DNA from: JAGLHV01 sp023143305 [NCBI: Clostridia bacterium]
Lineage (GTDB): Bacteria > CBDUZB01 > JAGLHV01
Assembly (NCBI GenBank): GCA_030637025.1
Contig: DAOVVV010000027.1
Location: forward strand, 1 to 33,276
Length of the DNA stretch: 33,276 nt
Reading direction: 5' to 3'
Shown here: piece by piece, positions 593 to 30,970 of the stretch
Layout: every line of letters starts with the position of its first letter
How positions within the stretch are numbered: the stretch's first letter is position 1
Notes under the pieces: generated by a model
What the model saw: only the letters and a program-made list of their open reading frames with translations
Told to the model about the DNA's origin: nothing
Database searches by the model: none
Made by a program: the position numbers and the translations under genes

Positions 593-910
593 AATATAAA
601 AAATAAATCCTAAATTCAAAATCCAAAATTCAAAACACAAAAGAAAAACTGATAAATCAGGCAACTACAAACAAAAAATAAAGTCATAAATAGTCATAAA
701 CTATGTTTGACTATTTCTTAATGTTATTTGCAATTTTTTATCCATACACTATCCTTTATCTTTTGTTTAGAATTTAATATTTTGAATTTAGAATTTGTTT
801 AGTATTTAGATATTAGGATTTAGTGTTTATTCTTTATTTTATCTGTCATCTGCTGTCTGTTATCTATGGACTATCGACTGTGGACTATGGACTATTCTTT
901 TGATGTTAGC
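593..910 (-). repeat. 3'-flank word-repeat mosaic between smpB and ssrA
   Basis: This 318-bp spacer has no convincing gene. Next to the smpB stop it carries a 7-bp-period array at 864-896 (ctatgga, ctatcga, ctgtgga, ctatgga, ctatt), which on the smpB strand reads as AGTCCAT-type words followed by AGATAACAGA. Further on come degenerate AATTTTGGATTTTGAATTT-type words (about 600-640 and 765-800). The same words recur after mutL, miaB and ATPase subunit E. No clear promoter for ssrA was found here. Confidence 0.6.
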
Positions 911-1375
911 CTATTTAAGCCTGAATTTGGATTCTTTTTCCTCTTCTCTCTGTATCGCTTTTTTTTTCAAACTTTCCCGTTTGTCATAAAGTTTTTTTCC
1001 TTTAGCAACGCCTAAAGAAACCTTCGCCAGGCCTCTTTTATTGAAATATATTTGTAAAGGAACCAGGGTAAAACCACGTTCTGCAACTTTTCCGATTAAT
1101 TTAGTAATTTCTTTTTTATGCAGTAATAATTTTCTTTTTCGGGTAGCATCATATTTTTTTTTATCCGTAGCAAAAGAATAAGGAGAAATATGCATATTAT
1201 ATAGGAATAGTTCTCCTTTGTCAATACGGGCAAAACCTTCTTTTAAATTAGCTTTACCGGTCCGTAAGGATTTTACTTCGTTTCCGGTTAAAACTATGCC
1301 TGCTTCATATTTTTCAATAATAGTAAACATATGAAAAGCAACTTTATTGGTAGCAATATTTTTTACAGATTTCAT
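911..1375 (-). CDS. smpB: SsrA-binding protein SmpB
   Basis: SmpB binds the tRNA-like domain of tmRNA and delivers it to stalled ribosomes. The protein starts MKSVKNIATN and has the family blocks YEAGIVLTGNEVKSLR, ANLKEGFARI, the HISPYSF region, RKLLLHK and, near the end, GLAKVSLGVAKGKKLYDKRE, followed by the basic C-terminal tail that enters the ribosomal A site. The frame is open upstream to a TTG at 1420, and an ATG also lies at 1393. I chose the ATG at 1375 because it gives 154 residues, the usual SmpB length, begins where the family normally begins, and has GGGG about 7 nt upstream. ssrA lies directly downstream on the same strand, a frequent arrangement. Confidence 0.95.
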   Translation of the reverse strand: MKSVKNIATNKVAFHMFTIIEKYEAGIVLTGNEVKSLRTGKANLKEGFARIDKGELFLYNMHISPYSFATDKKKYDATRKRKLLLHKKEITKLIGKVAERGFTLVPLQIYFNKRGLAKVSLGVAKGKKLYDKRESLKKKAIQREEEKESKFRLK

Positions 1376-1645
1376 TTTTTTACCCCAAATCATTTTATCA
1401 AACTTTACTTTTTTTTGCAATATATCTTTTTGTTAGTACCCTCTTTTTGAAAGTCAGGATAAATCTTGTCCCTTCTAAATTGAAGACAGGGTAAGATCTT
1501 CTTATTTAGTGTTTAAAGAAAGAAATTTGTTAATAGAATAAAACATAAAAAAAGAAAATGTGCCTTTTATTCTGCCTGTAGAAAAGGAGTGTGCTTAAAA
1601 ATAAATGCCAGAATAAATCTTGACACTTCTGTGAGCTGTTATTAG

Positions 1646-1675
1646 TTGACAGATTTTTGTTTTTTATGTTATAAT
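1646..1675 (+). promoter_or_regulatory. Sigma-70-type promoter for mgtE
   Basis: TTGACA at 1646-1651 and TATAAT at 1670-1675 are perfect consensus boxes with an 18-bp spacer. Transcription would start near 1682, leaving a leader of about 90 nt before the mgtE start. That is too short for a standard M-box magnesium riboswitch, and I saw no such fold. The rest of the 1376-1645 divergent spacer shows only an imperfect hairpin around 1467-1492 (ttgtcccttc facing gaagacagg). Confidence 0.75.
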
Positions 1676-1771
1676 CAAAAAAATAGTCGGAAATTTTTTA
1701 GTATAGAAATCATTTTGTAATGGTATTTTTTAAGTTTGTAAGATAAATTATATGCAAACATGAGGATAATA

Positions 1772-3166
1772 ATGAAACAAAACAAGTGGAAGTATGGTAT
1801 TTCTTTGTTTTTGCCTGAAATTAAAGAATTACTTGCTAAAAAAGATTATGAAGAATTAAAAAAATTTCAAAAAGAAATTTATCCTATCGATTTTGCTGAA
1901 GATTGGGAAAAATTTTCTTCTTCAGAAAAATATATTCTTTTTCATTTACTTCCTCACGCCCGAATGATTGATTTATTCGAAGAATTGGAATTTGACCAGC
2001 AAAAAGAGCTAATAGATAGTTTGCAGTCTCAGGAATTAAAAGAAGTCTTGGATGAAATGGCTTCAGATGAAAGAGCTGATTTGTTTAGAGAACTATCCGA
2101 AAAGACTAAAAAGAAACTTTTTGCTGTAATGAAAAAAGAGAAGGTAGAGGATGTAAAAAAACTTCTTACTTATGAAGAAAATACTGCCGGCAGTGTAATG
2201 ACAACCGAGTTTCTGGAATTAAAAAGAGAGATAACTGCCCGTGTAGCTTTATTAAGACTACAAGAATTTGCCAGCCGGTATAAAATAGAAGATATATCGA
2301 ATGTTTATATTACTGACGAACAACATCGTTTAATAGGAATTGTTTCCTTACAAAAATTAATTACTGCTCCCAGCACCAATATGTTATTAAAAGATCTTAT
2401 GTCTGCAGTTCAAATGATTAAGATCAATGTTAACCAGGACCAGGAAGAAGTAGCACGTCTCTTTAGTAAATACGATCTTCTTTCTGCACCTGTAGTAGGG
2501 GATGGAAACCAGTTATTAGGAGTTATTTCCATTGATGATGTAGTTGACGTTATAGAAGAAGAAACATCCGAGGATATTTATGGAATGGGTAAAATCAGCA
2601 GTGTGCACGATGCAGTACAAATCAATTATAGTCGTGCTTCTGTTTTTGTTTTAGCGAAAAATCGACTTATATGGTTGTTTATTCTTTTAATGATTGAAAT
2701 TTTTGTTTCCGGAAGATTAATTAAGAATTATTCGCATATGATAGAAACACTGATTATACTTACTTGTTTTATTCCTATGTTAATGGATACCGGGGGCAAT
2801 GCCGGTTCTCAGTCTCTAACAATGGTAGTTAGAGGCCTGGCTACGGGTGAGGTTAAAATTAATCAATTATGGAAAGTACTCCGGAAAGAAATTCTTGCTG
2901 GAATATCAGTAGGAGTATTGATAGGAATCGTGGGAACGATAGCTGTTTATTTGTTGTATGGATTTAATTTTAAACTAGGAATTTTAGTGGGAGTATCATT
3001 ATTAACAGTAATTACAATTTCTACAGTAACGGGGGCTTTATTGCCTTTGTTGTGTCAACGGATTGGCCTTGATCCGGCAATATCCGCAAGTCCTTTTATT
3101 ACTACGGTAGTAGATGCAACTACTATTGTTGTTTATTTTGAAATAGCCCGGTATTTATTTTTTTAG
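1772..3166 (+). CDS. mgtE: Magnesium transporter MgtE
   Basis: This is a Mg2+ channel/transporter of the inner membrane, gated by cytoplasmic Mg2+. The 464-residue protein has the N-terminal superhelical MgtE_N domain (about residues 10-130, with DERADLFREL), a tandem CBS pair (about 135-260, ending in VISIDDVVDVIEEE) and a C-terminal membrane domain of about five helices. That domain carries the hallmark PMLMDTGGNAGSQS and ends in PFITTVVDATTIVVYFEIA. An upstream in-frame ATG exists at 1760, but GAGGA at 1762-1766 sits 5 nt before the ATG at 1772, so I use the latter. Transcription is from the consensus promoter at 1646-1675. Length and domain order are normal. Confidence 0.95.
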   Translation: MKQNKWKYGISLFLPEIKELLAKKDYEELKKFQKEIYPIDFAEDWEKFSSSEKYILFHLLPHARMIDLFEELEFDQQKELIDSLQSQELKEVLDEMASDERADLFRELSEKTKKKLFAVMKKEKVEDVKKLLTYEENTAGSVMTTEFLELKREITARVALLRLQEFASRYKIEDISNVYITDEQHRLIGIVSLQKLITAPSTNMLLKDLMSAVQMIKINVNQDQEEVARLFSKYDLLSAPVVGDGNQLLGVISIDDVVDVIEEETSEDIYGMGKISSVHDAVQINYSRASVFVLAKNRLIWLFILLMIEIFVSGRLIKNYSHMIETLIILTCFIPMLMDTGGNAGSQSLTMVVRGLATGEVKINQLWKVLRKEILAGISVGVLIGIVGTIAVYLLYGFNFKLGILVGVSLLTVITISTVTGALLPLLCQRIGLDPAISASPFITTVVDATTIVVYFEIARYLFF

Positions 3167-3196
3167 TTGACATTTAGATTTAGTATTTTCTATGAT
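3167..3196 (+). promoter_or_regulatory. Promoter for the HD-GYP response regulator
   Basis: TTGACA at 3167-3172 directly abuts the mgtE stop codon (3164-3166) and is followed after 18 bp by TATGAT at 3191-3196. Transcription would begin near 3203, about 60 nt before the TTG start at 3262. Confidence 0.65.
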
Positions 3197-3261
3197 AAAC
3201 AATAAGATAGTAAATATAGTTATAAAAAATAATTTTTTTAGAGAAAAGAGAGGATTTTATT

Positions 3262-4776
3262 TTGAAACAAGAAACGAATATCTTAGTAATAGATGATGTA
3301 GACGTAATCCGAAATTTACTAATGGATATTTTGACAGATGTAGGATATAAAGTGACTGTTGCTTCTACAGGTAAAGAAGGGATTAATTTTGCGAAAAAAA
3401 ATACTTTTGATTTGGTAATAAGCGATTTGAAAATATCTGATATGGACGGACTTAACGTTATTAAAGAAATTAAAAAAATTAGTCCGGGAATAATGACTAT
3501 TATCATTACGGCTTATGCTACGGTAGAGACGGCACAGGATGCATTAAGGGAGGGGGTATTTGATTATGTTACTAAACCGTTTGATGCAAAATCACTTGTT
3601 TTTATAGTAAATAGAGCAATTAAATCTAAAAAACTAACAATGGCTAATCAGCAATTAATGAAAGACCTTATAGACCAAAAAGTTAAATTAGAAGAAGAAG
3701 TAGAAGACCTTTCAATTTTATATAAAATAAAACAGGAAATTTGTTCAACATTAGAATTAAATAAGATATTAAAAATTATTGTCGGTCGGGCAGCGGATAT
3801 TTTAGATGCCCAGGTATGTGTAATTCTTTTAATGAATCCCAGTTCCAAAGAATTATTTGTTCAGTGGGCACATGGATTAAGTAAGGAATATATAGAAACC
3901 ACTAAAATAAAAATAAATGAAGAAATTTCAGGGTGGGTTGCCGGCCATAATGAAGCAATTATCGTAGAAAACTTAAAAGAGGATTCCCGTTTTAACAAAA
4001 GAAAACAGGAAAAATATTATACTGATTCTTTTATTAGTGTACCTCTGATTCTTAAAGAAGAAGTAATCGGTGTAATTAATGCCAATGGCAAAATATTAAA
4101 AAATATTTTTACCGAGCATGATTTAAGACTTTTGTCCGGGGTAGCCATGGAAGCTGCTATTGCCATAGAACATGCCGCTCGATATAAAGATCTTCAGGAT
4201 AGATATTTAAAAAGCATAGCTGTTTTAGCTAATGCTCTTGATAATAAAATTAAATGTACAGAAGATCACTCAAAAAACGTTGCTAAATATGCAGCTGCTA
4301 TTGCCAAAAAGCTTGGTCTTTCTAAAAAAGAAATTGAAACAATCAAGCAAGCGGGAAAACTCCATGATTTAGGTAAAATAATTGTGTCTGACACTATTCT
4401 CACTAAAAAAGACAAGTTAACCGAGGAAGAGTGGGATAAAATAAAACAGCATTCATTGGTAAGTGCGGAAATAATAAAACCGTTAGATTTTATGGGGGAT
4501 GTTGGTAAAATCATAACGCAGCATCATGAACGTGTTGATGGGAAAGGGTACCCGTACGGCCTCCAAAAAGAGCAAATAAGTATAGGGGCACGAATACTAT
4601 CGGTTGTCGATGCTTTTGATGCAATGACTACGAACAGGCCTTATCGAAGTAAAAAAGCCTCTATTGATGAAGCAATTGCTGAATTAAAAAAATTCAGCGG
4701 AACACAATTTGACTCAAAAATTGTAGAAATATTAATTGAATTAGTAAAAGAAGATCCGGAATTATTTAAAAGATAA
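3262..4776 (+). CDS. Response regulator with REC, GAF and HD-GYP domains (probable cyclic-di-GMP phosphodiesterase)
   Basis: This is a 504-residue soluble signalling protein. Residues 5-125 are a receiver domain with the acidic pair D11-D12, phosphoacceptor D55, and the conserved Thr (IIITAYA) and Lys (VTKPF). A short coiled coil leads into a GAF sensor domain (about 150-300), and residues 315-490 are HD-GYP. All catalytic signatures are present: HDLGK, the downstream QHS, HHERVDGKGYP and DAFDAMTTNRPYR, so it should be active and not a degenerate sensor. The start is TTG, backed by AGAGAGGA 7 nt upstream. No histidine kinase is nearby, so the partner is unknown; the GAF ligand is also unknown. 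It has its own promoter and terminator, forming a single-gene unit. Confidence 0.9.
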   Translation: MKQETNILVIDDVDVIRNLLMDILTDVGYKVTVASTGKEGINFAKKNTFDLVISDLKISDMDGLNVIKEIKKISPGIMTIIITAYATVETAQDALREGVFDYVTKPFDAKSLVFIVNRAIKSKKLTMANQQLMKDLIDQKVKLEEEVEDLSILYKIKQEICSTLELNKILKIIVGRAADILDAQVCVILLMNPSSKELFVQWAHGLSKEYIETTKIKINEEISGWVAGHNEAIIVENLKEDSRFNKRKQEKYYTDSFISVPLILKEEVIGVINANGKILKNIFTEHDLRLLSGVAMEAAIAIEHAARYKDLQDRYLKSIAVLANALDNKIKCTEDHSKNVAKYAAAIAKKLGLSKKEIETIKQAGKLHDLGKIIVSDTILTKKDKLTEEEWDKIKQHSLVSAEIIKPLDFMGDVGKIITQHHERVDGKGYPYGLQKEQISIGARILSVVDAFDAMTTNRPYRSKKASIDEAIAELKKFSGTQFDSKIVEILIELVKEDPELFKR

Positions 4777-4789
4777 TATTTTAAAATTA

Positions 4790-4831
4790 AAAACAGGAAA
4801 TATTAACCAAATATGATTTTTCCTGTTTTTT
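4790..4831 (+). terminator. Intrinsic terminator of the HD-GYP gene
   Basis: aaaacaggaaa at 4790-4800 pairs with tttcctgtttt (stem about 11 bp, loop about 17 nt), followed by a run of T. It starts 13 bp after the stop codon and separates this gene from miaA. Confidence 0.75.
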
Positions 4832-4852
4832 GACAAATTGAGATTTCATAAA

Positions 4853-5827
4853 ATGAGTAAACCTTTAATAGCGATACTTGGTCCTACCTCTTCAGGAAAA
4901 ACAAAATTCTCTATATTCCTTGCCCAACAAATCAATGGAGAAATTATTTCTGCTGATTCCATTCAAGTATATAAATATATGAATATAGGAACTTCCAAAC
5001 CGCCCGGAAAATGGTTAACGGTTAAAGGGAAACGTTTTTTTATGGTTAATGGAGTTCCTCACTATATGATTGATGTAATAAAACCCGAACAAAAATTTAG
5101 TGTAGGGAAGTATACCATCGCAGCAACTAAGATTATTGAGGAAATTTATAAAAAGGGTAAAATACCTATTTTAGCAGGGGGAACGGGGTTATATATTAAA
5201 GCAATAATTAAAGGTTTATGTCCGGCACCTTCTGCTAATCAGAAAATAAGGAGAAACTTAAAAAAAGAAGCAACTCAAAACGGTATTGAATATCTTTACA
5301 ACCGTTTAAAAAAAATAGATCCCTGTGCTTCATTGCAAATTCATTGTAATAATTTACAGAGAATTATTCGAGCCTTAGAGGTTTATCAAATTACCGGTAT
5401 ACCTTTTTCCCAAATACAACAAAATACTCCAATTCCTAATTATAAAACAATAATGATTGGGTTAAAATGGAATAGGGAAATGCTTTATAAGAGAATTAAT
5501 CAAAGAGTAGAAAAAATGTTTAAAGATGGGTTGGTCAAAGAAGTTCAAAGCTTATTGGATAGAGGTTACAATCGAAACTTGCCTTCAATGCAAGGTTTAG
5601 GATATAAACAGGTTTTTGATTACCTGGAAAAAAAAATTGATTTAGAAGAAACAATATCTTTAGTAAAACGTGATACTCGAAGATATGCGAAAAGGCAATT
5701 AACCTGGTTTAATAAAGATAAGGATATTCATTGGATAGAGATAAACAAAGATATCGACATAAAAGAGGGCATGAATAAGATGTGTTTACTTGTGAAAAAA
5801 ATATTAACTCGAAAAATAATAATGTGA
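4853..5827 (+). CDS. miaA: tRNA dimethylallyltransferase MiaA
   Basis: MiaA transfers a dimethylallyl group from DMAPP to N6 of A37 in tRNAs reading UNN codons, forming i6A. The 324-residue protein has the P-loop GPTSSGKT (residues 10-17), the substrate-binding block SADSIQVYKYMNIGTSKPP, GGTGLYIKAI, and the C-terminal MQGLGYKQV and RRYAKRQLTWFN motifs. The frame also opens at TTG 4838. I chose ATG 4853 because it places the P-loop at the usual distance from the start; neither has a good SD. The last base of the TGA stop lies beyond the GTG of the next frame (GTGA overlap at 5824-5827), suggesting coupling with hflX. The product is the substrate for MiaB, encoded at 30946-32373. Confidence 0.95.
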   Translation: MSKPLIAILGPTSSGKTKFSIFLAQQINGEIISADSIQVYKYMNIGTSKPPGKWLTVKGKRFFMVNGVPHYMIDVIKPEQKFSVGKYTIAATKIIEEIYKKGKIPILAGGTGLYIKAIIKGLCPAPSANQKIRRNLKKEATQNGIEYLYNRLKKIDPCASLQIHCNNLQRIIRALEVYQITGIPFSQIQQNTPIPNYKTIMIGLKWNREMLYKRINQRVEKMFKDGLVKEVQSLLDRGYNRNLPSMQGLGYKQVFDYLEKKIDLEETISLVKRDTRRYAKRQLTWFNKDKDIHWIEINKDIDIKEGMNKMCLLVKKILTRKIIM

Positions 5828-5838
5828 CTAATTTACTA

Positions 5839-7101
5839 ATGGGTAAAGAAAAAGTAATACTAATAGGTGTTTTATTACCTTCCAAAAAGAGGATTTTCGT
5901 AGAAGATTGCCTGGAAGAACTATCCAGTTTGTGTAATACTGCCGGGGCAGAGGTAGTAGATTTTTATATACAAAAAAGAAAAAAAATTGATTCTGCCTAT
6001 TTTATAGGTAAAGGGAAAATAGTTCAAATACAAAAAAAACATTTAACTAATGGAAAAATAAATACTATCGTTTTTGATGATGATCTTTCTCCCGCACAAC
6101 AAAGAAATCTGGAAGAAATTACCGGGATAAAAATTGTAGACCGTACCCGCTTGATTTTAGATATTTTTGCTAAAAGAGCTTATAGCAAAGAAGGTAAATT
6201 ACAAGTGGAATTGGCCCAATTAACTTACTTGCTTCCTCGCTTGATGGGAAAGGGTATTGCTTTATCTCAACAAGCAGGGGGGATTGGAACAAAAGGCCCG
6301 GGAGAAAAGAAATTAGAAATAGATAGAAGACGGATAAAAAGCCGCATTTTTGTTTTAAAAAAGGAAATTGAAAAAATAAAAAGTCATAGAGCACTTCAGA
6401 GGGAAAGAAGAAAACAGATTCCCATGCCAATGGTTACCTTAATTGGTTACACTAATGCCGGCAAATCTACCTTGTTTAATACTTTGGCTAAAGCATCAAT
6501 TTTTGTTGAAAATAAACTATTTGCTACTTTAGATCCAACTATCCGGCAAATAATTTTACCTGATGGTCAAAAAGCCCTTTTAGCTGATACAGTGGGATTC
6601 ATTCGTAAACTTCCACATCAATTGATAACCGCTTTTCGAGCTACCCTGGAAGAAGTATCACAAGCAGATATTCTTTTACATATTATAGACTCGACCCATA
6701 AAAACAAGCAGGAACAAATTAAAGCTACATATCAAGTATTAGAAGAATTAGGGATAGAAAACAAACAGATAGTAAATGTATATAACAAAATAGACCTTCT
6801 TCCTACAGAAATAAAGCAGAAAGAATTAAGAGGGGAAAAAGGGATTTTTGTTTCCGCTTTAAAAAGCGAAGGAATTTTGTTGCTTTTAAACACGATATCC
6901 GGTTTGCTGGAGAAGGAATTAGTAAGAGCAACCATTGTTATTCCTTCTTCTGAAAGTAGTATTATTTCTAAGATTTTCGATAAAAGCGTAGTGTTAAAGA
7001 AAAAATACAATAAAGATAAACTTACTTTAGAGGTAAAGTTGGCTAAAAAACATGCCGAAAAGTTCAAAGAATATATAGTAAAGACAGTTGAATTGGTTTA
7101 G
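5839..7101 (+). CDS. hflX: GTPase HflX
   Basis: HflX is a ribosome-associated GTPase that splits or rescues ribosomes under stress. The 420-residue protein has the HflX N-terminal domain with NLEEITGIKIVDRTRLIL, a glycine-rich linker (GGIGTKGPGEKKLEIDRR) and then the G domain: G1 GYTNAGKST (about residue 202), DPT, G3 DTVGFIRKLP, G4 NKID and G5 SALKSEG. ATG 5839 gives a normal N-terminus (MGKEKVILIGV). A GTG at 5824 overlapping the miaA stop would add five residues and is a real alternative, since neither has a clear SD. The stop codon TAG (7099-7101) lies inside a 9-bp-period repeat array, so the last codons appear repeat-derived. Confidence 0.95.
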   Translation: MGKEKVILIGVLLPSKKRIFVEDCLEELSSLCNTAGAEVVDFYIQKRKKIDSAYFIGKGKIVQIQKKHLTNGKINTIVFDDDLSPAQQRNLEEITGIKIVDRTRLILDIFAKRAYSKEGKLQVELAQLTYLLPRLMGKGIALSQQAGGIGTKGPGEKKLEIDRRRIKSRIFVLKKEIEKIKSHRALQRERRKQIPMPMVTLIGYTNAGKSTLFNTLAKASIFVENKLFATLDPTIRQIILPDGQKALLADTVGFIRKLPHQLITAFRATLEEVSQADILLHIIDSTHKNKQEQIKATYQVLEELGIENKQIVNVYNKIDLLPTEIKQKELRGEKGIFVSALKSEGILLLLNTISGLLEKELVRATIVIPSSESSIISKIFDKSVVLKKKYNKDKLTLEVKLAKKHAEKFKEYIVKTVELV

Positions 7102-7128
7102 ATTGGTTTTATTAGTTACATTGGTGTG
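7092..7128 (+). repeat. 9-bp-period array spanning the hflX stop codon
   Basis: Successive units are ATTGGTTTAG, ATTGGTTTT, ATTAGTTAC and ATTGGTGTG. The same array in the same gene-relative orientation follows ATPase subunits D (15133-15168) and E (19373-19409). The hflX TAG falls inside the first unit. Confidence 0.75.
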
Positions 7129-7382
7129 TGCCAAGATAAGTTTTTTGTAAACTATCCTGATGAAAAGTTCAGGAGACAGTAAATGTCTGTTAGAGGCATC
7201 CTCCTTATTCTCAGGCGGAGCGGACTATCGCTTTACTCCAGCAAAAAGAAAAAGACATTTTTTCCCCCTTTAAAAAAGGGAGTAGGGGGATTTAGACAAG
7301 AGGCAAATACTAAATTTTAAACACATTTTGCCTTTATTTACTTTATTAATTTTTAATTAAATAAAAACAGGGGTAATTAAAA
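7129..7382 (+). repeat. Repeat-rich spacer between hflX and der
   Basis: No gene is seen. At about 7212-7247 is a GC-rich word (CTCAGGCGGAGCGGACTATC followed by GCTTTACTCCAGCAA) that recurs inverted at about 19278-19316 in the spacer after ATPase subunit E. At 7262-7291 a run of C and A/T followed by AAAGGGAGTAGGGGGA forms a short hairpin without a T tract. der is expected to have its own expression signal, but I could not identify a convincing promoter. Confidence 0.55.
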
Positions 7383-8714: not shown

Positions 8715-8765
8715 GTTAATGGCTATTTTATATAGGAGAAAAAATTAATTGTAAATAAAAATTAC

Positions 8766-9456: not shown

Positions 9457-9460
9457 AAAA

Positions 9461-14127: not shown

Positions 14128-14160
14128 TTTTACTACCTCCTTTTTTTGTTGTTTTAAGAT

Positions 14161-14291
14161 TTCTGCAAAATACAATATTCTGTCATTCCGCTCCGCCTAA
14201 GGCACTTGATGCGGAATCTATATGTTTTTAAATATCAATAGATTCCTGCTTTCGCAGGAATGACAAAAAGATAAAAAGCTATTTTGCAGAA
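14161..14291. repeat. MITE-like nested palindrome, copy 1
   Basis: The core at 14181-14265 starts TGTCATTCC and ends GGAATGACA. Inside it GGAATCTAT faces ATAGATTCC around an AT-rich centre. Outside the core, ttctgcaaaata at 14161-14172 is exactly inverted at 14280-14291. The core is shared with 20498-20596 and partly with 32546-32628. No reading frame is present, so it is non-autonomous if mobile. Confidence 0.8.
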
Positions 14292-14305
14292 GTCTATGTT
14301 ATTTT

Positions 14306-14333
14306 ATAGTGTTTTTGAAGACACTATTTTTTA
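14306..14333. other. Small hairpin between the usp gene and the palindromic element
   Basis: atagtgt (14306-14312) pairs with acactat (14321-14327). The T run follows on the + strand, whereas the adjacent gene is on -, so a role as the usp terminator is doubtful. Confidence 0.35.
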
Positions 14334-14889: not shown

Positions 14890-15192
14890 TAAAATTTTTA
14901 AGTAATATTTAACTTGTAATTTATTGACCACTTGAATACAAACTATTCTTTCAAATTCCCAATTTCAAACTTCAAACTTCTTTAACTCATGACTATCTCT
15001 TTGCCATTCTCCATTTGCAATCTTTTGTCTTTTAACTGTCTTTGTTCTTTTAACCTATAACTTTCTGTTATTTAAGAACGATCTGTTATCTTTTCTTTTA
15101 ACTTTGTGCCTTTGTGCCTCTTTTTTTATCCTTTAACCAATTTAACTAATAAAACCAATGTAACCAATGCACCGCCTTTTAACCGTCTTTAA
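14890..15192 (-). repeat. 3'-flank word-repeat mosaic after ATPase subunit D
   Basis: Read from the subunit D stop on its own strand: a perfectly phased 9-bp array (15168-15133, four units of ATTGGTTAC type), two 8-bp GGCACAAA units (15118-15103), TTAAAAGA and AGATAACAGA words, and GAAGTTT/GGAATTTGAA words near 14945-14980. The block ttttaaccgtctttaa (15177-15192) covers the last codons and stop of subunit D and is identical to 19418-19433 at the end of subunit E. No gene is seen. Confidence 0.7.
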
Positions 15193-18988: not shown

Positions 18989-19433
18989 AATCTTTTTCCC
19001 CTTCCATTCATAATTTCCCGTCTTGCAGACTAGCGGACAAACGCCATTCCCCTACTCCTCTTGCAATCTTTTATCTGTTGTTTATGGACTATACTTTCAA
19101 ACTCCCAAATTCAAATTTTCCGCCTTATCCACCAGTCTGTAAGGCGGATCTTTCTCTTTTAACTTTGTGCCTCTGTGCCTTGATGCCTTTGTGCCTGTAT
19201 TTTACATAATTAATAACTTATAAATATCTGTTTGTCTTTTGCTTTTTGTCTTTATCCGTAATCTATGGACTATCTGTTGCTGGAGCAAAGCGACAGTCCG
19301 CTCCACCTGAGGCGGATAAAGCGGATTCCTCAGTGCCTGTCTTTTTCTTTTAACTGTCTTTTCTTTTATCTTTTAACCAATCTAACTAATAAAACAAATC
19401 TAAACCAACTAACCGTTTTTTAACCGTCTTTAA
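18989..19433 (-). repeat. 3'-flank word-repeat mosaic between ATPase subunits E and A
   Basis: Read on the operon strand after the subunit E stop: a 9-bp array (19409-19373), TTAAAAGA words, a GC-rich block at about 19316-19278 that recurs inverted at 7212-7247, AGTCCATAGAT at about 19272-19262, an 8-bp array (19195-19164, four GGCACAAA-type units), a TCCGCCTTAC...TAAGGCGGA block (about 19150-19122), GAATTTGGGAGTTTGAA, and a last AGTCCAT word near 19090. No gene is seen. Confidence 0.7.
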
Positions 19434-24075: not shown

Positions 24076-24120
24076 TGTTTAATACTACCCTTTTGTATAT
24101 TTTGTGCCATCTGCGTTCTC

Positions 24121-24444: not shown

Positions 24445-24449
24445 CTCCT

Positions 24450-25706
24450 TTATTTTTTATATAAATTTATTTCCTCTTTATTTTTGTAATAAAAATAAAA
24501 AATACTGATATAACTAATAATGGAAATAAATAATAGGGCTATTGAAACGATGATATCAAGCATTTGAAACGATATTGACCAGTTTGATAAACCAATAGTT
24601 CCAAATGTCGAGTAAAAAAATGACGAAATATAAATCGGTATTGCCAAAAACGCGGTGCAAATCATAATCATGGTTAGATATTTTAAAAGAAAAATTTTAA
24701 TAAAAACTATTGTTTTTTTTATTGATTTTAAAAAATCCAATTTTTCTGTAGTAATAATAAACGGCGTCATCAAAATAATAACGCTCAGTAGAGGCATTAA
24801 AAAAGATGAAGATACTTTTTTAATGCTGTCTAATAATTTAAATGATACCGGGGGTATTCCCGTAAGTAAATATTGTATTGTTTGTCCGAATTCTGAAAGA
24901 GAAAAAATGTAAGTAATTAAGACTAATAATACTTTGAAAACAAATAATTTCTTAAAAACCGAAAATGAATCACTTAATACTTCTTTCAAAGAATATATCT
25001 TGTTTTCAAAAATCCCATTCAAACTTAACAGAATTGCTGCTTCTAAGATTGAAAAAAGCAATAAGCCGGAAAAACTTAATACAATCATTATCCCTGTTGT
25101 GGTTAATAAAAGAATAGTATTACTTTTTATCTTAATATTCAGAATGACTAAAACAATAAAAAAAAGAATTGCAAATAAAGAATACTTCATTTGTCTGCTG
25201 AAAGAATCTACATCAATTTTATTTTTAACGTCTACGAATTTGAGTATTTTTTTATGAACAATTTTATATATTAATAAATAACCGATAATACCAAGAAAAA
25301 ACAGAAAATTCCCTGCTATAAAACCTGAAAAACCATAATCTAAATATAATGGTGCTTTAATTAAAGCACCTAATGATTTTACCATGACTGATAGGACATT
25401 TATACTTTGAGAAGTTCTAAATGCAGAATTTAAAACACACGGATATTTAAGATAATAATAAATCCAAACCGTGATTTTATAAAAACAATTTGCCAGAATA
25501 AAAATGAAAGGCAGAACAAACAACCATGTATTATTTTTTAAGATCAACAGGGATTTTTTAAAAATATCAAAGATTTCATTAAAATTCTTAAAACCGGTAA
25601 AGGAAGTGCCGGGAAGCTTTTTAGCCATTTTTTGATGGATAAAATAAGCTATTAGATAGATTAAAAGAGCTATTCCCACTATGTTCATAAATAATACTTC
25701 TTTCAT
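24450..25706 (-). CDS. Polytopic membrane protein of unknown function heading the ATPase operon
   Basis: This 418-residue protein has about nine or ten hydrophobic segments and no recognised catalytic motif. The first helix is at residues 4-23. A soluble stretch (about 26-58) precedes an amphipathic FKKSLLILKNNTWLFVLPFI. The latter, a helix followed by N-x-W and a hydrophobic LP motif, is reminiscent in style of membrane proteins such as the GPDPase_memb/DUF4013 type, but I cannot assign it. AAGGA lies 10 nt before the ATG. Its stop codon is 5 bp from the subunit H start and forms the context TAAAGGAGATG. It is therefore the first gene of the V-ATPase operon, and an assembly or accessory role is an inference from position only. 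Confidence 0.8.
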   Translation of the reverse strand: MKEVLFMNIVGIALLIYLIAYFIHQKMAKKLPGTSFTGFKNFNEIFDIFKKSLLILKNNTWLFVLPFIFILANCFYKITVWIYYYLKYPCVLNSAFRTSQSINVLSVMVKSLGALIKAPLYLDYGFSGFIAGNFLFFLGIIGYLLIYKIVHKKILKFVDVKNKIDVDSFSRQMKYSLFAILFFIVLVILNIKIKSNTILLLTTTGIMIVLSFSGLLLFSILEAAILLSLNGIFENKIYSLKEVLSDSFSVFKKLFVFKVLLVLITYIFSLSEFGQTIQYLLTGIPPVSFKLLDSIKKVSSSFLMPLLSVIILMTPFIITTEKLDFLKSIKKTIVFIKIFLLKYLTMIMICTAFLAIPIYISSFFYSTFGTIGLSNWSISFQMLDIIVSIALLFISIISYISIFYFYYKNKEEINLYKK

Positions 25707-25854
25707 TTTCTTTTTTTCCTTTAAATAGTTTGCATTTTTTTTGTCTTTTAGTTTAAGTTTCTATTTCTTGTTTTTTTGAATTCATAATTCCTATGTCTGT
25801 TGTCTTTATTCTGTTATCTATGGACTATGGACTAAATCTGTTTTTGTCTCTTGT
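25707..25854 (-). repeat. Word-repeat spacer after mutL
   Basis: On the mutL strand, directly after the stop, come GACAAGAGACAAAAACAG, two and a half 7-bp AGTCCAT units (25834-25818) and AGATAACAGA. The remaining AT-rich part before the membrane-protein gene has no clear promoter, so readthrough from mutSL into the ATPase operon is possible. Confidence 0.55.
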
Positions 25855-27672
25855 CTATATCCTCTTAAACTTCCTATCTAATTCTTCTTCGGTGATTTCT
25901 ATTATTATAGGTCGGCCATGTGGACAGGTAAACGGGTTTTTTGTTCTTTTTAAATCTTCCACTAATTTTTCTATTTCCCTGCTTCCTAATGAATCTTTTG
26001 CTCTTATTGCCGTATGGCAGGCGGTTCTTATAATACGGTCGGTTATTTCATCGCTAAGTTCGATTTCTTTTTTAACGGTTCCTAATTCTAATAAGCGATC
26101 TAAAACATCCTGAATAATCTGTTTATTATTTTTATCTCCCAAAAGTGCCGGTATTCCTTTTACTTTAAAATCATTAGCCCCGAATTCTTCGATTTGAAAC
26201 CCTATTTTATTGAGATAAGTAACGTTTTTTTTTACTACTACACTTTGGCTGGGAGAAAGTTCAATAGTAAAAGGAATAAGTAATCCCTGAATAGAAACGG
26301 CCTCTTTGCTAATTTCTTCTTTAAACTGTTCGTAAACTATGCGCTCAGAAGCAGCATGCTGATCAATTACCAGTAAATTTCTTCCTTTTTGTGCCAGAAT
26401 ATATTTATTGCTCATCTGCGCCAGGGGTTGTATCTGAATATCAATAAGTAATCCTTCTTTTTCTTCTTTTGAATTTGAATAAACAAATTTCTTAGGTTGG
26501 GATAAATCCTGTTTTGATAAATTTTGTTTGTTAATATTCGCAAAAAAATTCTTCCGGTCAACTGAAGAACGAAATGTTTTATTCGGTTTAGTCATATAAT
26601 CAGCAATACATTCTTTTATTCCCCTGTCCCGTTGATTAAACTGGTTGGGTAACGGCTGATATTTAACATTGGCGGAGAATTCCCCCCGTTGCAATGATTT
26701 TTTTATTTCTTCGGCTAATAAAGAATGTATCGCCTGCTCATTAATAAAACGGATTTCCGATTTGGCAGGATGAACATTTACATCAATCAGGGATGGTTCT
26801 ATTCGGATAAACAGAAATATCGCCGGATACCTTTTAGGAGGAATTATATTTAAATAAGCACTATAGATAGCATGGCTGAGTAATCTTGACCCGATAAAGC
26901 GATTATTTACAAAAATTAATTGTCGGTTTCGATTAGAAAAAGTACTGGAAGGAGGAGAAATAAAACCTCTGACGGATAAAAAATTATTAGAAAAACTTAA
27001 ACTTTTTAGTCTGCTAAAAAACTGATTTCCGTATAATGCCACCAATCGATCAGCAGGGTTTTTAATTCGAGGAACATTGATTAATTCCTTTCCTTCACTG
27101 ATTAGTTTAAAAGCAACCTCATAAAAAGATAAAGCCATACTTTCTACTATTTTACTGATATGGTCTATTTCGGTAGTATTAGACTTTAAAAACTTTCTTC
27201 TTGCCGGAGTATTAAAAAACAATTCTTCTACATCAATTTGCGTCCCTTCCGGACAACCCGCTTCTTTTATTGCTTCTTCCTTTCCTCCGACGGAAATAAT
27301 TTGATTTCCGGCTAAAGAACCCTTTGTTTTAGTAAATAATTTAATTTTAGAAACAGCGGCAATACTGGGCACAGCTTCACCTCTAAACCCCAGAGAAGTT
27401 ATTTTTTCCAAATCTTCGGCCCGGGTAATTTTACTGGTTGCATAACGATGAAAAACCAGGGGTAAATCCTGCCTGCTTATTCCTTCTCCGTTATCAGTAA
27501 CCCTGATTAAACCTTTACCTCCACCCTTTATTTCTACCAGTATTTGAGTGGCTCCGGCATCCAGGGAATTTTCCATTAATTCTTTAACTACCGAAGCCGG
27601 ACGCGATACTATTTCTCCGGCAGCAATTTTGTTTACAACCTCAGTAGATAAACTTTTTATTTTATTAGGCAT
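25855..27672 (-). CDS. mutL: DNA mismatch repair endonuclease MutL
   Basis: MutL couples MutS mismatch recognition to strand incision. The 605-residue protein has the GHKL ATPase N-terminus (IAAGEIVSRPASVVKELMEN, VTDNGEGI, GFRGEAVPSIAAVS, FFNTPARRKFLK). After a variable linker (about residues 335-405) comes the C-terminal dimer/nuclease domain. The metal-binding endonuclease motifs are present: DQHAASERIVYE, ACHTAIRA, CPHGRPIII and a final FKRI. This marks the incising type found in bacteria lacking MutH. The frame opens at GTG 27681, but ATG 27672 begins MPNKIKSLS at the normal place; it overlaps the end of mutS by 8 bp. Confidence 0.96.
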   Translation of the reverse strand: MPNKIKSLSTEVVNKIAAGEIVSRPASVVKELMENSLDAGATQILVEIKGGGKGLIRVTDNGEGISRQDLPLVFHRYATSKITRAEDLEKITSLGFRGEAVPSIAAVSKIKLFTKTKGSLAGNQIISVGGKEEAIKEAGCPEGTQIDVEELFFNTPARRKFLKSNTTEIDHISKIVESMALSFYEVAFKLISEGKELINVPRIKNPADRLVALYGNQFFSRLKSLSFSNNFLSVRGFISPPSSTFSNRNRQLIFVNNRFIGSRLLSHAIYSAYLNIIPPKRYPAIFLFIRIEPSLIDVNVHPAKSEIRFINEQAIHSLLAEEIKKSLQRGEFSANVKYQPLPNQFNQRDRGIKECIADYMTKPNKTFRSSVDRKNFFANINKQNLSKQDLSQPKKFVYSNSKEEKEGLLIDIQIQPLAQMSNKYILAQKGRNLLVIDQHAASERIVYEQFKEEISKEAVSIQGLLIPFTIELSPSQSVVVKKNVTYLNKIGFQIEEFGANDFKVKGIPALLGDKNNKQIIQDVLDRLLELGTVKKEIELSDEITDRIIRTACHTAIRAKDSLGSREIEKLVEDLKRTKNPFTCPHGRPIIIEITEEELDRKFKRI

Positions 27673-30346
27673 TATTTTCACTTTCTTTTTTAAACTTTAA
27701 TGTTCTTTTCTTTAATTCCTGTAATTTATTTAAAGCTTCCAGGGGAGTCAAGCCATCTATAGGTAATTGCTTAATTTCTTCCATCAGGAGATTTTGTTGT
27801 TGGGTAAAGAGATTTAATTGTTTATTATTTGAATCTTCCGTGTCGGTATTTAGTCGTAAAACATTTCCTTCTTTGTAAACATTCTTTTCCAATTCTACTA
27901 AAATGTCTTTTGCTCTGTTGGTTACCGAAGCAGGTAATCCGGCTAATTTTGCTACATGAATACCATAACTTTTATCGGCACTCCCTTCTATTATTTTACG
28001 CAGGAAAATTATTTCATCGTTCCATTCCCTCACAGCAATATTGTAATTTTTTACTCCTTTTAATATTCGGGCTAATTCAGTTAATTCAAAATAATGCGTA
28101 GCAAAAAGGGTTCTTGGACCTTGATTAGTATCTTTATCCTTTTTACTGTGCAGGTATTCCACACTGGCCCAGGCAATACTCACTCCGTCAAAAGTGGAAG
28201 TCCCTCTCCCTACTTCATCTAAAATTAATAAACTACGGGAAGTAGCATTATTAAGAATATTTGCTGTTTCGTTCATTTCCACCATAAATGTCGATTCTCC
28301 CTCAGCAAGATTATCTGCAGCTCCGATACGGGTGAAAATTCTATCCACTATCCCTATTTCTCCTTCTCTGGCCGGAATAAAACTACCGATTTGAGCCATA
28401 AGGGTAATCAAAGCTACCTGCCTGAGATAAGTTGATTTTCCGGCCATATTAGGTCCGGTTATAATCAAAATCTGGTTCTCGTTGCCGTCTATCTGTATAT
28501 CGTTGGGAATAAAACCCATCCCTACCAGACTTTTTTCTACTACCGGATGTCTTCCGTCCCGTATAACAAACCGGTAATCATTAGTTACTTCCGGCCGGCT
28601 ATAATTATTGATTACCGCAGCTTCGGATAAACTTAAAATAGCGTCCAGAGTCGCAACAGTTAAGGATACTTCCTGAATAGCTGTAGTTTTTCTGATTACT
28701 TTTTCCTTGATTTTTTGAAATACCTCGTATTCTAAGTTAAAAATCTTTTCTTCCGCTCCTAAAATAAAAGATTCCTGTTCTTTCAATTCCGGGGTAATGA
28801 ATCTCTCAGCGTTAGTTAAGGTTTGTTTACGAATGTAGTTTTCAGGTACATTAGCCAGATTTGCCCTGGTTATTTCAATATAATATCCAAAAACACCGGT
28901 ATAGCCTATCTTTAAGGAATTAATTCCGGTACGTTTTTTTTCTTTTTTTTCTAAATTGAGTATCCATCCTTTACTTTCCGAACGAGCCAGGTTAATTTGG
29001 TCTAATTCAGAGTGATATTCCTTTTTAATTAATCCCCCTTCCCTCAGAGATACAGGGGGTTCATCCACTATTGATTTTTCAATCAGTCCATAAACTTCTT
29101 TTAAGTCGGATAATTGTTTTGTCAAATTACGCAGGAAATTACAATGAACTTTATCCATCTTTTCTTTAATCAAAGGAATAACTTTTAACGAATTTTTCAA
29201 GGCTACCAAATCCCGGGCATTGGCTGTTCCACAATTTAGCCGGCTGATTAATCTTTCCAAGTCACTTATTTTTTTTAATTCATCCTGTAGGTTCTTACGC
29301 AAAACAGTATCGAGAAAAAATTCAGCATTTGCTTTTTGTCTTGCCTGGATTTTTTCTATATCCAGCAATGGTTCAAGTATCCATCGCCTGAGAGTTCTTG
29401 TTCCCATTGGGGTTAAGGTATAATCCAGTACTTCAAGCAAGCTGTTTTTTCTGGTTTTAGTGGATAAACCGGTCACCAGTTCCAGATTGTCCTGAGTAGA
29501 TTTATCCAGAACCATAAAATTTTCCGTAGAATACCACTGCAGGTGATTTATATGAGCAAGAAAAGTTTTTTGTGTATCTCCCAGATAAGCAACAATTGCT
29601 CCCGAAGAAAAAATAGCCTCTTCTTTATCTTCTAAGTTAAATCCTTTAAGTGAGGCGACTTTAAACTGATTTGTTAACTTTTGATAAATAGATGCTTTTT
29701 CATATCGCCAGTCCTCAATAAAATTAATGGAAATATTCCACCTTCCTAAAAAATCCAGAAAATCTTTTTTTTCTTTCATAAAACAGGGTAAAATACATTC
29801 GGCCGGTTGAAAACGGGAAATCTCATTGCTTAATTTATCCAGAATATGTTTGCCGCCTATTTGTGTAGTTAAAAATTCCCCGGTAGAAATGTCGGTAAAG
29901 GATAAACCAATTTTACTGTTGGCATTTAAGTCGGAAATTTTGACCCCTTCGAATATTTTGGGATCAATATAAATAGCGGATAAAAAATTATTGTTTTCCT
30001 TAGAAAGAAGATGATCTTCTACAATCGTCCCGGGAGTAATTAAACGAACAACCTCTCTTTTTACAATTCCTTTACCGGCTCCGGGAGATTCCATTTGTTC
30101 ACAAACAGCTACTTTTTGTCCCTGCTTAATCAGCCGGGCAATATAATTGGTAGCAGAATGATGAGGAACACCGCACATAGGAATTTTGTGACGGGAAGTT
30201 AAAGTAATTTCTAAAAGGCGGGAAGCAACCTGAGCATCTTCTCCGAACATTTCATAAAAATCGCCTAAACGAAAAAAAAGGATAGCCCCGGGATAATTTT
30301 TTTTTATTCGTTGATATTGCTGCATCAAAGGAGTAATTTTATTCAT
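27665..30346 (-). CDS. mutS: DNA mismatch repair protein MutS
   Basis: MutS recognises mismatches and small loops. The 893-residue protein has the mismatch-binding N-terminus with the FYE motif (FFRLGDFYEMFGEDA), connector, lever/clamp helices, and the C-terminal ABC-type ATPase with P-loop GPNMAGKST (about residue 630), the signature and Walker B region DEVGRGTSTFDG, and FATHYFELTEL. A short C-terminal tail follows from about residue 805 to 893. The ATG at 30346 is preceded by GGAGG at about 14 nt, a long spacing, but an in-frame stop just upstream leaves no earlier start. It lies 9 bp after the LapA-like gene and overlaps mutL, so the three form one operon. Confidence 0.97.
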   Translation of the reverse strand: MNKITPLMQQYQRIKKNYPGAILFFRLGDFYEMFGEDAQVASRLLEITLTSRHKIPMCGVPHHSATNYIARLIKQGQKVAVCEQMESPGAGKGIVKREVVRLITPGTIVEDHLLSKENNNFLSAIYIDPKIFEGVKISDLNANSKIGLSFTDISTGEFLTTQIGGKHILDKLSNEISRFQPAECILPCFMKEKKDFLDFLGRWNISINFIEDWRYEKASIYQKLTNQFKVASLKGFNLEDKEEAIFSSGAIVAYLGDTQKTFLAHINHLQWYSTENFMVLDKSTQDNLELVTGLSTKTRKNSLLEVLDYTLTPMGTRTLRRWILEPLLDIEKIQARQKANAEFFLDTVLRKNLQDELKKISDLERLISRLNCGTANARDLVALKNSLKVIPLIKEKMDKVHCNFLRNLTKQLSDLKEVYGLIEKSIVDEPPVSLREGGLIKKEYHSELDQINLARSESKGWILNLEKKEKKRTGINSLKIGYTGVFGYYIEITRANLANVPENYIRKQTLTNAERFITPELKEQESFILGAEEKIFNLEYEVFQKIKEKVIRKTTAIQEVSLTVATLDAILSLSEAAVINNYSRPEVTNDYRFVIRDGRHPVVEKSLVGMGFIPNDIQIDGNENQILIITGPNMAGKSTYLRQVALITLMAQIGSFIPAREGEIGIVDRIFTRIGAADNLAEGESTFMVEMNETANILNNATSRSLLILDEVGRGTSTFDGVSIAWASVEYLHSKKDKDTNQGPRTLFATHYFELTELARILKGVKNYNIAVREWNDEIIFLRKIIEGSADKSYGIHVAKLAGLPASVTNRAKDILVELEKNVYKEGNVLRLNTDTEDSNNKQLNLFTQQQNLLMEEIKQLPIDGLTPLEALNKLQELKKRTLKFKKESENNA

Positions 30347-30355
30347 TACTTATCA

Positions 30356-30646
30356 TCACTCCTCCGGTTCTTCATCATCTTTTTTTAATTCAGCAAATCG
30401 AACAGATAAAGCCTCAATTTTCCTGTCTTTTTCTTTGAGTATGCTGATTAATTTCCATTGCTTTAAAAGTCCCAGGATAGTAGCAAAGAGACCTCCAAAT
30501 AAAACCGAAATCAAAATGACCACCATTAAAGAAAGAGGAGGGCTTACCCATCCAAATAATTTAATTTCAACCGGTGAAATATTTTGCATAGTAAAAACAA
30601 CCAAAATTAAAGAAAATAATAAAATAACAATTAATTTTAACTGCAT
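30356..30646 (-). CDS. LapA-like (DUF1049) small membrane protein
   Basis: This 96-residue protein has two membrane helices (residues 3-21 and 38-63) joined by the family signature TMQNISPVEIKLFGW. A cytoplasmic coiled-coil tail (LKEKDRKIEALSVRFAELKK) ends in DDEEPEE. The LapA domain family includes the E. coli lipopolysaccharide-assembly factor, but small members in other phyla have no proven role. GGAGG sits 5 nt before the ATG, and a promoter lies at 30685-30714. It leads the mutS-mutL operon, so its promoter probably drives mismatch repair expression. Confidence 0.8.
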   Translation of the reverse strand: MQLKLIVILLFSLILVVFTMQNISPVEIKLFGWVSPPLSLMVVILISVLFGGLFATILGLLKQWKLISILKEKDRKIEALSVRFAELKKDDEEPEE

Positions 30647-30684
30647 CCCTGCCTCCTTTTTTTCCCTTATATTTTCAATAAAGT

Positions 30685-30714
30685 ATTATAATCATATTTC
30701 AACACTTTTTTCAA
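30685..30714 (-). promoter_or_regulatory. Promoter of the lapA-like-mutS-mutL operon
   Basis: On the minus strand TTGAAA (30714-30709), an 18-bp spacer and TATAAT (30690-30685) form a sigma-70-type promoter. Transcription would begin near 30678, about 30 nt before the lapA-like start. Confidence 0.7.
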
Positions 30715-30796
30715 GATATTTTTCTTGCTCTGCCAATCTGTAAGGTGAATAAAACGGGTCATTTTTATATACAGGCTGTATCATGGCCCCCTTTTT

Positions 30797-30847
30797 TGGT
30801 AGCCGCAGGCTTTTAGCCTGCATAAAATTTAAAGGTTGCGGCTACCA
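30797..30847. repeat. 51-bp three-part palindrome
   Basis: Outer arms tggtagccgca (30797-30807) and tgcggctacca (30837-30847) are exact complements. An inner hairpin gcaggc...gcctgc lies at 30805-30821 and shares bases with the left arm. AT-rich sequence (ataaaatttaaagg) fills the rest. It lies in the 299-bp spacer between miaB and the lapA-like gene, has no reading frame, and looks like a dispersed palindromic repeat; a decayed relative may be at 11098-11117. Confidence 0.75.
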
Positions 30848-30873
30848 CATAAAAATCTGAATTATGCCACAGG

Positions 30874-30970
30874 AGGATATTTTTTCTTTTAACTTTATGA
30901 CTCTGTCTTTCTGCCTATATTTTTCTTTTATCTGGTATCTGTGGACTATGGACTGTCGACTATGGACTGT
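30874..30970 (-). repeat. Word-repeat mosaic overlapping the miaB 3' end
   Basis: On the miaB strand a 7-bp array (30970-30939: AGTCCAT, AGTCGAC, AGTCCAT, AGTCCAC units) is followed by AGATACCAGATAAAAGAAAAA and AAGTTAAAAGAAAA words. The last seven codons of miaB (QSIVDSP) and its TAG stop lie wholly within the array. Confidence 0.75.

What the first reader, a model, noticed from the sequence alone, without database searches (positions are those of the whole stretch)
593..30970. Word-like, short-period repeat mosaics in gene 3' flanks with a fixed orientation
Spacers after smpB (864-896), hflX (7092-7128), ATPase D (15103-15168), ATPase E (19090-19409), mutL (25818-25834) and miaB (30939-30970) are built from the same few words: AGTCCAT (period 7), GGCACAAA (period 8), ATTGGTTAC (period 9), plus AGATAACAGA and TTAAAAGA. 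Read on the strand of the preceding gene, the words are always in the same orientation and the 9-bp array comes nearest the stop. I know of no standard element type that behaves this way. Possible explanations are slippage-driven growth of transcribed 3' UTRs, a retro-element acting on mRNA ends, or selected mRNA-end signals.
Basis: seen in the sequence. Interest (0 to 1): 0.65.

Follow-up and report, generated by a model that had tools for sequence, protein, structure and literature searches.

The report
Repeated DNA words facing gene gaps
Short repeated DNA words, often copies of a 7-letter unit, sit against the ends of genes and read outward into the gap; the pattern is real and occurs in unrelated bacteria, but it extends a published kind of repeat and its purpose is unknown.

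Summary
The words are real; the 7-bp one has 7 hits against 0.13 expected. The window's own genome is not held, so relatives G001-G003 were used. In a 0.92 Mb sample of G002, AGTC[CG]A[TC]AG lies within 100 nt of 30 of 455 gene 3' ends and 9 of 467 5' ends; at all 39 it reads AWAY from the gene, sense after stops and antisense before starts. The rule recurs in three unrelated genomes. Opposite arrays in one gap face each other 18:1, and modules keep an order. Orthologous gaps keep the slot while words turn over. No reverse transcriptase is detected in four word-bearing genomes. Four-unit arrays dominate in G002 and G359 but not in four other samples.

Rehm et al. 2015 (PMC4692102) reported this polarity for GGGNATC-type heptamers in Xanthomonas and Nostoc, with facing pairs in Xanthomonas. 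AGTCNAY cannot form quadruplexes, so quadruplexes do not explain the architecture in general. Best reading: polar arms of foldback-like intergenic inserts. New variant of a known kind.

The parts
606..635 (+). AATCCTAAA/AATTCAAAA period-7 words at the 5' side of the tmRNA gene, reading away from it
   Evidence: TRF; orientation; tmRNA 240-592 (-)
762..823 (-). TTCTAAA/CTAAATCC words, tail of the smpB 3' arm, facing the + words at 606-635
   Evidence: TRF
857..896 (-). four-unit AGTCNAY array followed by AGATAACAG, after the smpB stop (911)
7092..7128 (+). 9-bp ATTGGTTAC-type array overlapping the hflX stop (7101)
15132..15168 (-). 9-bp array after the V-ATPase D stop; conserved in G003
15102..15119 (-). 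8-bp GGCACAAA array (two units); this module is absent from the orthologous G003 gap
15028..15102 (-). GTTAAAAGA and AGATAACAG words in the same 3' arm
19369..19419 (-). 9-bp-type words directly after the V-ATPase E stop; G003 has the 7-bp array in this same slot
19263..19271 (-). single AGTCCATAG in the E-A gap
19163..19195 (-). four-unit GGCACAAA-type array in the E-A gap; sense strand, but in the start-side half, so it reads toward atpA (against the outward rule)
25811..25834 (-). two-unit AGTCCAT array plus AGATAACAG after mutL; one copy of AGTCCATAG in G003
30939..30970 (-). four-unit AGTCNAY array that overlaps and supplies the miaB stop codon

Best explanation
These are DNA-level intergenic inserts with two arms that face each other, like foldback elements: each arm starts against a gene end with a short tandem array (in this genus often 7-bp units, in G002 mostly four), is followed by further short-period words in a preferred order, and reads toward the middle of the gap. 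Because the insert fills the gap, its arms read away from the neighbouring genes (outward reading shown; that the two arms belong to one insert is inferred for G002 and clear only in G359). Arms next to start codons are lost or selected against more often than arms next to stops, giving the 3' surplus (inferred). The slots are inherited, while the words in them are replaced, expanded and contracted by slippage and copying between dispersed copies (turnover shown; copying mechanism inferred). How new arms arise, and which enzyme if any moves them, is not shown.
For: Within 100 nt of gene ends in G002: 3' ends 30 away, 0 toward; 5' ends 9 away, 0 toward. Outer-zone 7-bp arrays away/toward: G002 70/6, G003 7/0, G001 4/0, window 1/0, G359 8/0, G027 7/0, G068 6/0. 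Neighbouring arrays of opposite strand in one gap face each other 9 times and diverge once in G002, 6:0 in G359, 1:0 each in G003, G027, G068. Both gap ends armed (both / left only / right only / neither): G002 5/19/18/353, p = 0.009; G359 4/4/1/56, p = 0.0005; G027 1/1/2/35, p = 0.15; G068 1/2/1/41, p = 0.13. The nine word-bearing G359 gaps printed look like compact two-armed elements of about 90-150 bp with a similar loop; six of them that I folded had z from -1.9 to -5.8. Module order on the sense strand: 7-bp before ATAACAG 25:1, before GTTATAAGTTA 16:0, before 8-bp 18:0. Slots: of 60 ortholog comparisons 8 word/word, 2 word/none, 0 none/word, 50 none/none, p = 2e-8. In the 8 word/word comparisons the head word is swapped for a 9-bp or 8-bp one in 3 and stays 7-bp in 5, with different mosaics behind it (by inspection); at the V-ATPase E-A gap window and G003 differ in the head word. 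One near-empty counterpart (403 bp against 28 bp).
Against: In G002 most arm-bearing gaps show only one 7-bp arm (37 of 42), and among gaps of 300 bp or more the association of the two arms is not significant (p = 0.07). No target-site duplication, exact terminus or dedicated transposase was found. In G359 the two arms differ in unit type, so they are not perfect inverted repeats. Counter-oriented cases: 6 outer arrays in G002, mid-gap arrays 12 away/8 toward in G002, 3/3 in G003 and 5/3 in G359, one 5' end in G001, 3 of 9 contig ends in G003 and 1 of 15 in G002. The 8-bp word in the start-side half of G002 gaps is more often toward (9) than away (5), which fits a sense-strand bias better. Outward lean is not unique to the tandem words: over whole gap halves CGCAGGCTTT is 22:5 and CCCCCTTTG 25:13, against 47:11 for the 7-bp word; within 150 nt CGCAGGCTT is 16:6 and CCCCCTTTG 14:9, against 43:2 for AGTCCATAG. 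Several arrays share a gap, so array counts are not independent. The stretches of G001, G003, G359, G027 and G068 were chosen because they match the window or hold words.
Confidence: 0.4

Rival explanations
1. Protein-binding arrays: a few tandem 7-bp (or 8-bp) sites form an iterated operator for a DNA-binding protein, placed at gene ends as insulators or chromosome-organising sites; polarity reflects directional binding.
For: Exactly four units in 75 of 122 runs of G002 and 10 of 18 of G359, the G359 ones all different in sequence, so there unit number is constrained more than sequence. Slots are conserved. Iterated heptads bound by a protein exist (parS of pSM19035, PMC9499535, seen in a search listing only; ribbon-helix-helix binding recalled).
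Against: Four is not the mode in G003 (5 of 22), G001 (1 of 6), G027 (1 of 9) or G068 (0 of 12). The head word in one slot changes between relatives from 7-bp to 9-bp types. No candidate protein was sought.
Confidence: 0.19
2. 3'-end RNA function: arrays are selected parts of mRNA 3' ends (stability or termination), and 5' antisense arrays are by-products.
For: 3' surplus (30 of 455 against 9 of 467 ends); many arrays start within a few tens of nt of the stop or contain it; the 8-bp word is mostly sense. Rehm et al. found transcript starts and stops more often at quadruplex-type repeats (section 15 read).
Against: All 9 near-start ends in G002 are antisense and read away; arrays occur in divergent gaps of G359 and G027 with the same polarity.
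Confidence: 0.18
3. End addition: a polymerase extends free 3' DNA ends at breaks in gaps with templated words, so words read outward from both sides of the break.
For: Symmetric outward polarity and preferred order of words from the gene outward. Enzymes that make tandem-repeat DNA exist in bacteria (DRT10, PMC12632851, abstract read).
Against: RVT_1 not detected in G001, G003, G068, G097 (G003 is 86% complete). G359 elements share a loop between the arms, which suggests copying of whole elements.
Confidence: 0.1
4. Slippage plus gene conversion in unconstrained spacers, with no element and no function; polarity is a relic of a few founding copies.
For: Copy numbers differ between relatives (mutL one against two); length varies by a median of 256 bp in word gaps and 4.5 bp in word-free gaps; two 28-mers supply 50 of the 75 four-unit runs in G002; some non-tandem repeats also lean outward.
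Against: Polarity recurs in unrelated genomes with other unit variants; word-free gaps never carry words in the ortholog (0 of 50).
Confidence: 0.13

Closest known systems
GGGNATC / GGGGA(C/T)T heptamer repeats of Xanthomonas and Nostoc (Rehm et al. 2015, PMC4692102; abstract, sections 14-16 and passages read)
   Same: Tandem 7-bp unit, within 50 bp of stops on the sense strand and of starts on the antisense strand; convergent pairs (70 cases in X. campestris, 75 in X. axonopodis, few in Nostoc); 83% in the same gene context between the two Xanthomonas; four-unit preference (here in G002 and G359 only).
   Different: Unit is AGTCNAY, without quadruplex-forming G-tracts; words of periods 7, 8 and 9 combine in one arm in a preferred order; relatives can carry different words in one slot.
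TAACTGA direct repeats of marine Beggiatoaceae, cyanobacteria and Bacteroidetes (MacGregor 2015, PMC4679880; abstract, introduction, section 24 and passages read)
   Same: Intergenic heptamers next to gene borders with a strong orientation; forward strand carries stop codons; sporadic across phyla.
   Different: Mostly just upstream of starts in the main genome; here mostly after stops. Different unit. A sample from Microcystis showed mixed orientations.
STRR and small dispersed repeats of cyanobacteria; long simple sequence repeats (Mrazek 2007)
   Same: Abundant 7-bp tandem arrays and mosaics in spacers (recalled; Mrazek as cited in the MacGregor introduction).
   Different: Not compared here; the original papers were not read.
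Foldback transposons of Drosophila (recalled, no call)
   Same: Long inverted arms built of short tandem repeats of several periods in a set order.
   Different: No transposase, termini or target duplication found; many slots have one arm only.

Membership tests
Polar gene-end heptamer repeats (Rehm 2015 kind) | 7-bp tandem unit | tested here: met
   TRF period 7 in the window; runs of two or more units in all seven sets
Polar gene-end heptamer repeats (Rehm 2015 kind) | preference for four units | tested here: inconclusive
   exactly four units: G002 75 of 122, G359 10 of 18, window 2 of 3; but G003 5 of 22, G001 1 of 6, G027 1 of 9, G068 0 of 12
Polar gene-end heptamer repeats (Rehm 2015 kind) | sense within 50 bp of stops, antisense within 50 bp of starts | tested here: met
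   within 60 nt in G002: 3' ends 30 away/0 toward, 5' ends 6 away/0 toward
Polar gene-end heptamer repeats (Rehm 2015 kind) | convergent pairs | tested here: met
   convergent against divergent 18:1 over five genome samples
Polar gene-end heptamer repeats (Rehm 2015 kind) | same gene context in relatives | tested here: met
   8 of 10 word-bearing comparisons keep words, 0 of 50 word-free ones gain them
Polar gene-end heptamer repeats (Rehm 2015 kind) | G-quadruplex-forming unit | tested here: not met
   the common 28-mers have no run of three or more G on either strand; seen in the sequence
TAACTGA repeats | unit TAACTGA, mostly just upstream of starts | tested here: not met
   unit is AGTCNAY; 30 of 39 gene ends are 3' ends
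MITE / foldback transposon | two inverted arms | tested here: inconclusive
   clear in G359; only 5 of 42 arm-bearing gaps in G002 have both
MITE / foldback transposon | target-site duplication and defined ends | tested here: inconclusive
   one near-empty counterpart compared, at about 69% protein identity; too diverged to define ends
REP / RAYT system | palindromic unit and Y1 transposase | tested here: not met
   unit not palindromic; Y1_Tnp matches: G001 0, G097 0, G002 13, G003 3, G027 3, G068 6, G359 5, and 0-5 in eleven comparison genomes
Retro-element or reverse-transcriptase system | reverse transcriptase gene | tested here: not met
   RVT_1: 0 matches in G001, G003, G068, G097; 2 in G002, 1 in G359, 1 below the cut-off in G027; 1 of 11 comparison genomes

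The most novel reading that the evidence does not exclude
Many bacteria mark gene ends with polar iterated arrays whose sequence is free to change but whose outward direction and slot are kept. The G-quadruplex repeats of Xanthomonas and Nostoc would then be one case of a general, structure-independent system of facing intergenic arms that is rewritten word by word, by a process or binding factor not yet known.
Probability: 0.27. Interest if true: 0.75.

Novelty: new variant of a known kind. Interest (0 to 1): 0.45.

Why it matters
Heptamer arrays are common in bacterial spacers and unexplained. The published analysis of their polarity that I found tied the four-unit preference to quadruplex formation. 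Here a unit that cannot form quadruplexes shows the same outward polarity, facing pairs and conserved slots, and in two genomes the same four-unit mode; three unrelated genomes share the polarity. That speaks against quadruplexes as the general cause and makes the question testable: what keeps direction and slot when the word itself is replaced.

Tried and rejected
Simple strand or replication bias: rejected as sole cause, because 5'-end arrays read antisense and G359, G027 and G068 have many strand switches (22 of 103, 23 of 67 and 29 of 147 neighbouring gene pairs) with the same rule.

Stop codons in the word as the cause of polarity: the AGTC[CT]AC arrays of G027 have no stop codon on their forward strand (by inspection), yet are polar (7/0 outer).

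Reverse-transcriptase system: RVT_1 not found in four word-bearing genomes. RAYT/REP: some excess of Y1_Tnp in carriers, none in G001 and G097.

Shared vocabulary across phyla as proof of horizontal transfer: AGTCNAYAGTCNAYAGTC hits 20 of 386 genomes, in 16 families beyond the window's own (counted by eye), but the reversed control pattern hits about 39 (counted by eye). That control is itself a heptad of the TAACTGA type, so it is no clean null and the claim is dropped. GGCACAAAGGCACAAAGGCAC hits 2 of 98 genomes and none of G001-G003.

The six exact word strings searched are not in the held papers (0 papers). The other literature searches (two found nothing) gave the two close papers used. 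No claim of absence from print is made beyond these searches.

Limits: my gene caller is a simple hexamer scorer that misses some genes (for example 24450-25706), so some gaps are too long. Dropped before counts: gaps shorter than 20-80 nt (by test), the window from some G002 counts, arrays inside genes and at stretch ends (given apart), G002 self-matches (x loci). Ortholog pairs were accepted from 45% protein identity up, so a few may be paralogs.

Full report
What is there. The window is 33 kb of a low-GC bacterium whose own assembly is not held. G001 matches its second part at 100% over long stretches, and G003 at roughly 81-93% over its longer protein-coding matches. Contig lengths suggest that G001 and G003 are the uncultured MAGs RS_2_16 and RS_13_36 (inference). 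G002 is a third member of the genus. The 7-bp word, AGATAACAG, GTTAAAAGA and the 9-bp word are above chance; the 8-bp word is not by count, only by its tandem form.

Genome-scale test. I took 80 stretches of G002 (924,570 bases), called genes with a hexamer script and scored words against gene ends. Counting 10-mers in the spacers without choosing words put the AGTCCATAG type first (CTATGGACTA/TAGTCCATAG 127 against 0.17 expected). With the window included, AGTCCATAG in co-directional gaps is 154 sense to 43 antisense. The antisense hits lie largely on the start-codon side. Scored against the nearest gene end within 100 nt, 30 of 455 3' ends and 9 of 467 5' ends carry the word; all 39 read away from the gene and none toward it. 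Over whole gap halves the G002 counts of ends are 33 away, 4 toward and 3 both at 3' ends, and 14, 7 and 2 at 5' ends.

Replication. In 20 G003 contigs, chosen because they match the window or its words, 9 of 69 3' ends and 1 of 69 5' ends are away within 100 nt and none toward; in 20 G001 contigs, 3 of 70 3' ends are away and 1 of 68 5' ends is toward. In three unrelated genomes, with 20 stretches chosen for words, outer-zone 7-bp arrays are 8/0 (G359), 7/0 (G027) and 6/0 (G068) away/toward, including divergent gaps in G359 and G027. Mid-gap arrays are mixed: G002 12/8, G003 3/3, G359 5/3, G027 1/0, G068 2/0. For the 8-bp word the outer counts are 10/2 in G002, 10/2 in G068, 3/0 in G003, 3/0 in G001 and 1/0 in the window, though in the start-side half of G002 gaps it is 5 away to 9 toward. 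Binomial p is 6e-15 for the G002 7-bp arrays, 2e-10 for the other sets together and 3e-5 for the 8-bp word; arrays in one gap are not independent, so the gene-end counts are the safer ones. As a yardstick, non-tandem repeats of the same gaps lean outward less near the ends: within 150 nt CGCAGGCTT 16:6 and CCCCCTTTG 14:9, against AGTCCATAG 43:2, although over whole halves CGCAGGCTTT reaches 22:5.

Anatomy. Arrays of opposite strand in one gap face each other 18 times and diverge once, over five genome samples. G359 shows compact elements: a 7-bp array, a loop close to TTTTAAAGGAATTATTTATTT, and a facing 7-bp array; six of the nine, folded as single-stranded DNA, have z from -1.9 to -5.8. The two arms differ in unit type, so pairing is imperfect. 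In G002 the head of an arm is commonly the 7-bp array, then ATAACAG, then GTTATAAGTTA or the 8-bp array, with CCCCCTTTG hairpins later; the 7-bp word precedes these 25:1, 16:0, 18:0 and 10:2 times. Exactly four units make up 75 of 122 runs in G002, 10 of 18 in G359 and 2 of 3 in the window, but 5 of 22 in G003, 1 of 6 in G001, 1 of 9 in G027 and 0 of 12 in G068. Two 28-mers supply 50 of the 75 in G002, which points to copying rather than independent slippage; the ten in G359 all differ.

Slots and turnover. Sixty ortholog comparisons between G002 gaps and gaps of G001, G003 and the window set give 8 word/word, 2 word/none, 0 none/word and 50 none/none (p = 2e-8). In the eight paired gaps the mosaic begins within about 30 nt of the upstream stop in both; the head word stays 7-bp in five and is a 9-bp or 8-bp word in three, and the mosaic behind it differs (by inspection). 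At the V-ATPase E-A gap the window starts with the 9-bp word and G003 with the 7-bp word, while at atpD the 9-bp array and at mutL the 7-bp word are kept. One G002 gap of 403 bp corresponds to 28 bp in G001, at about 69% protein identity. Word gaps differ in length by a median of 256 bp, word-free gaps by 4.5 bp. The ortholog contigs were chosen for matches and words, which raises the number of word gaps but not their agreement by slot.

Mechanism. A rule symmetric about the gene/gap border speaks against transcription as the driver and for a DNA-level insert with facing arms. The 3' surplus (30 against 9 ends, p = 0.0005) then needs selection against arms before starts, or an added role at mRNA ends. 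The weak points are that 37 of 42 arm-bearing gaps in G002 show one arm and that no mobiliser or termini were found. RVT_1 reverse transcriptases are not needed, as far as these incomplete genomes tell, and Y1 transposases are more frequent in some carriers but absent in G001 and G097.

Known kind. Rehm et al. 2015 report for GGGNATC-type heptamers the same near-stop sense and near-start antisense placement, a four-unit preference, convergent pairs in Xanthomonas (few in Nostoc) and conserved gene context, and link the four units to quadruplex formation. AGTCNAY cannot form quadruplexes, so that link does not hold in general. MacGregor 2015 reports TAACTGA arrays mostly forward into start codons, which is the same outward direction for its complement at 5' ends. 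The finding is therefore a new variant of a known, unexplained kind.

Noticed in passing
window 14153-14307: A roughly 150-bp dispersed repeat with a CCTGCTTTCGCAGG hairpin in the gap before the usp-like gene; many partial copies at about 76-92% identity in G001-G003 (the list was cut).
   Followed up: no
window 24450-25706: A 418-aa ORF with no NCBIfam hit, present between mutL and its neighbour in the window but missing from the orthologous G003 contig (C130), where about 70 bp separate the flanking matches.
   Followed up: partly
window 1501-1630: 91% match to a G003 contig (C44, L213 3194-3323) whose upstream reading looks by eye like the C-terminal end of a transposase: possible transposase remnant upstream of the gene at 1760.
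   Followed up: no
G002 sample, L095-L174 plus window: Gene strands hardly ever switch: 486 of 507 gaps of 20 nt or more are between co-directional genes.
   Followed up: no
ends of fetched G002 stretches: 26 seven-bp arrays lie beyond the first or last called gene of a fetched stretch, so the arrays may break assemblies and be under-counted.
   Followed up: partly
window 30793-30840 and 7243-7293: Separate palindromic dispersed repeats (GGTAGCCGCAGGC and CCCCCTTT hairpins) in the same spacers, with weaker polarity in G002.
   Followed up: partly
window 18989-19419: The V-ATPase operon is split by a 431-bp word mosaic between subunits E and A, while A-B and B-D are nearly abutting.
   Followed up: partly
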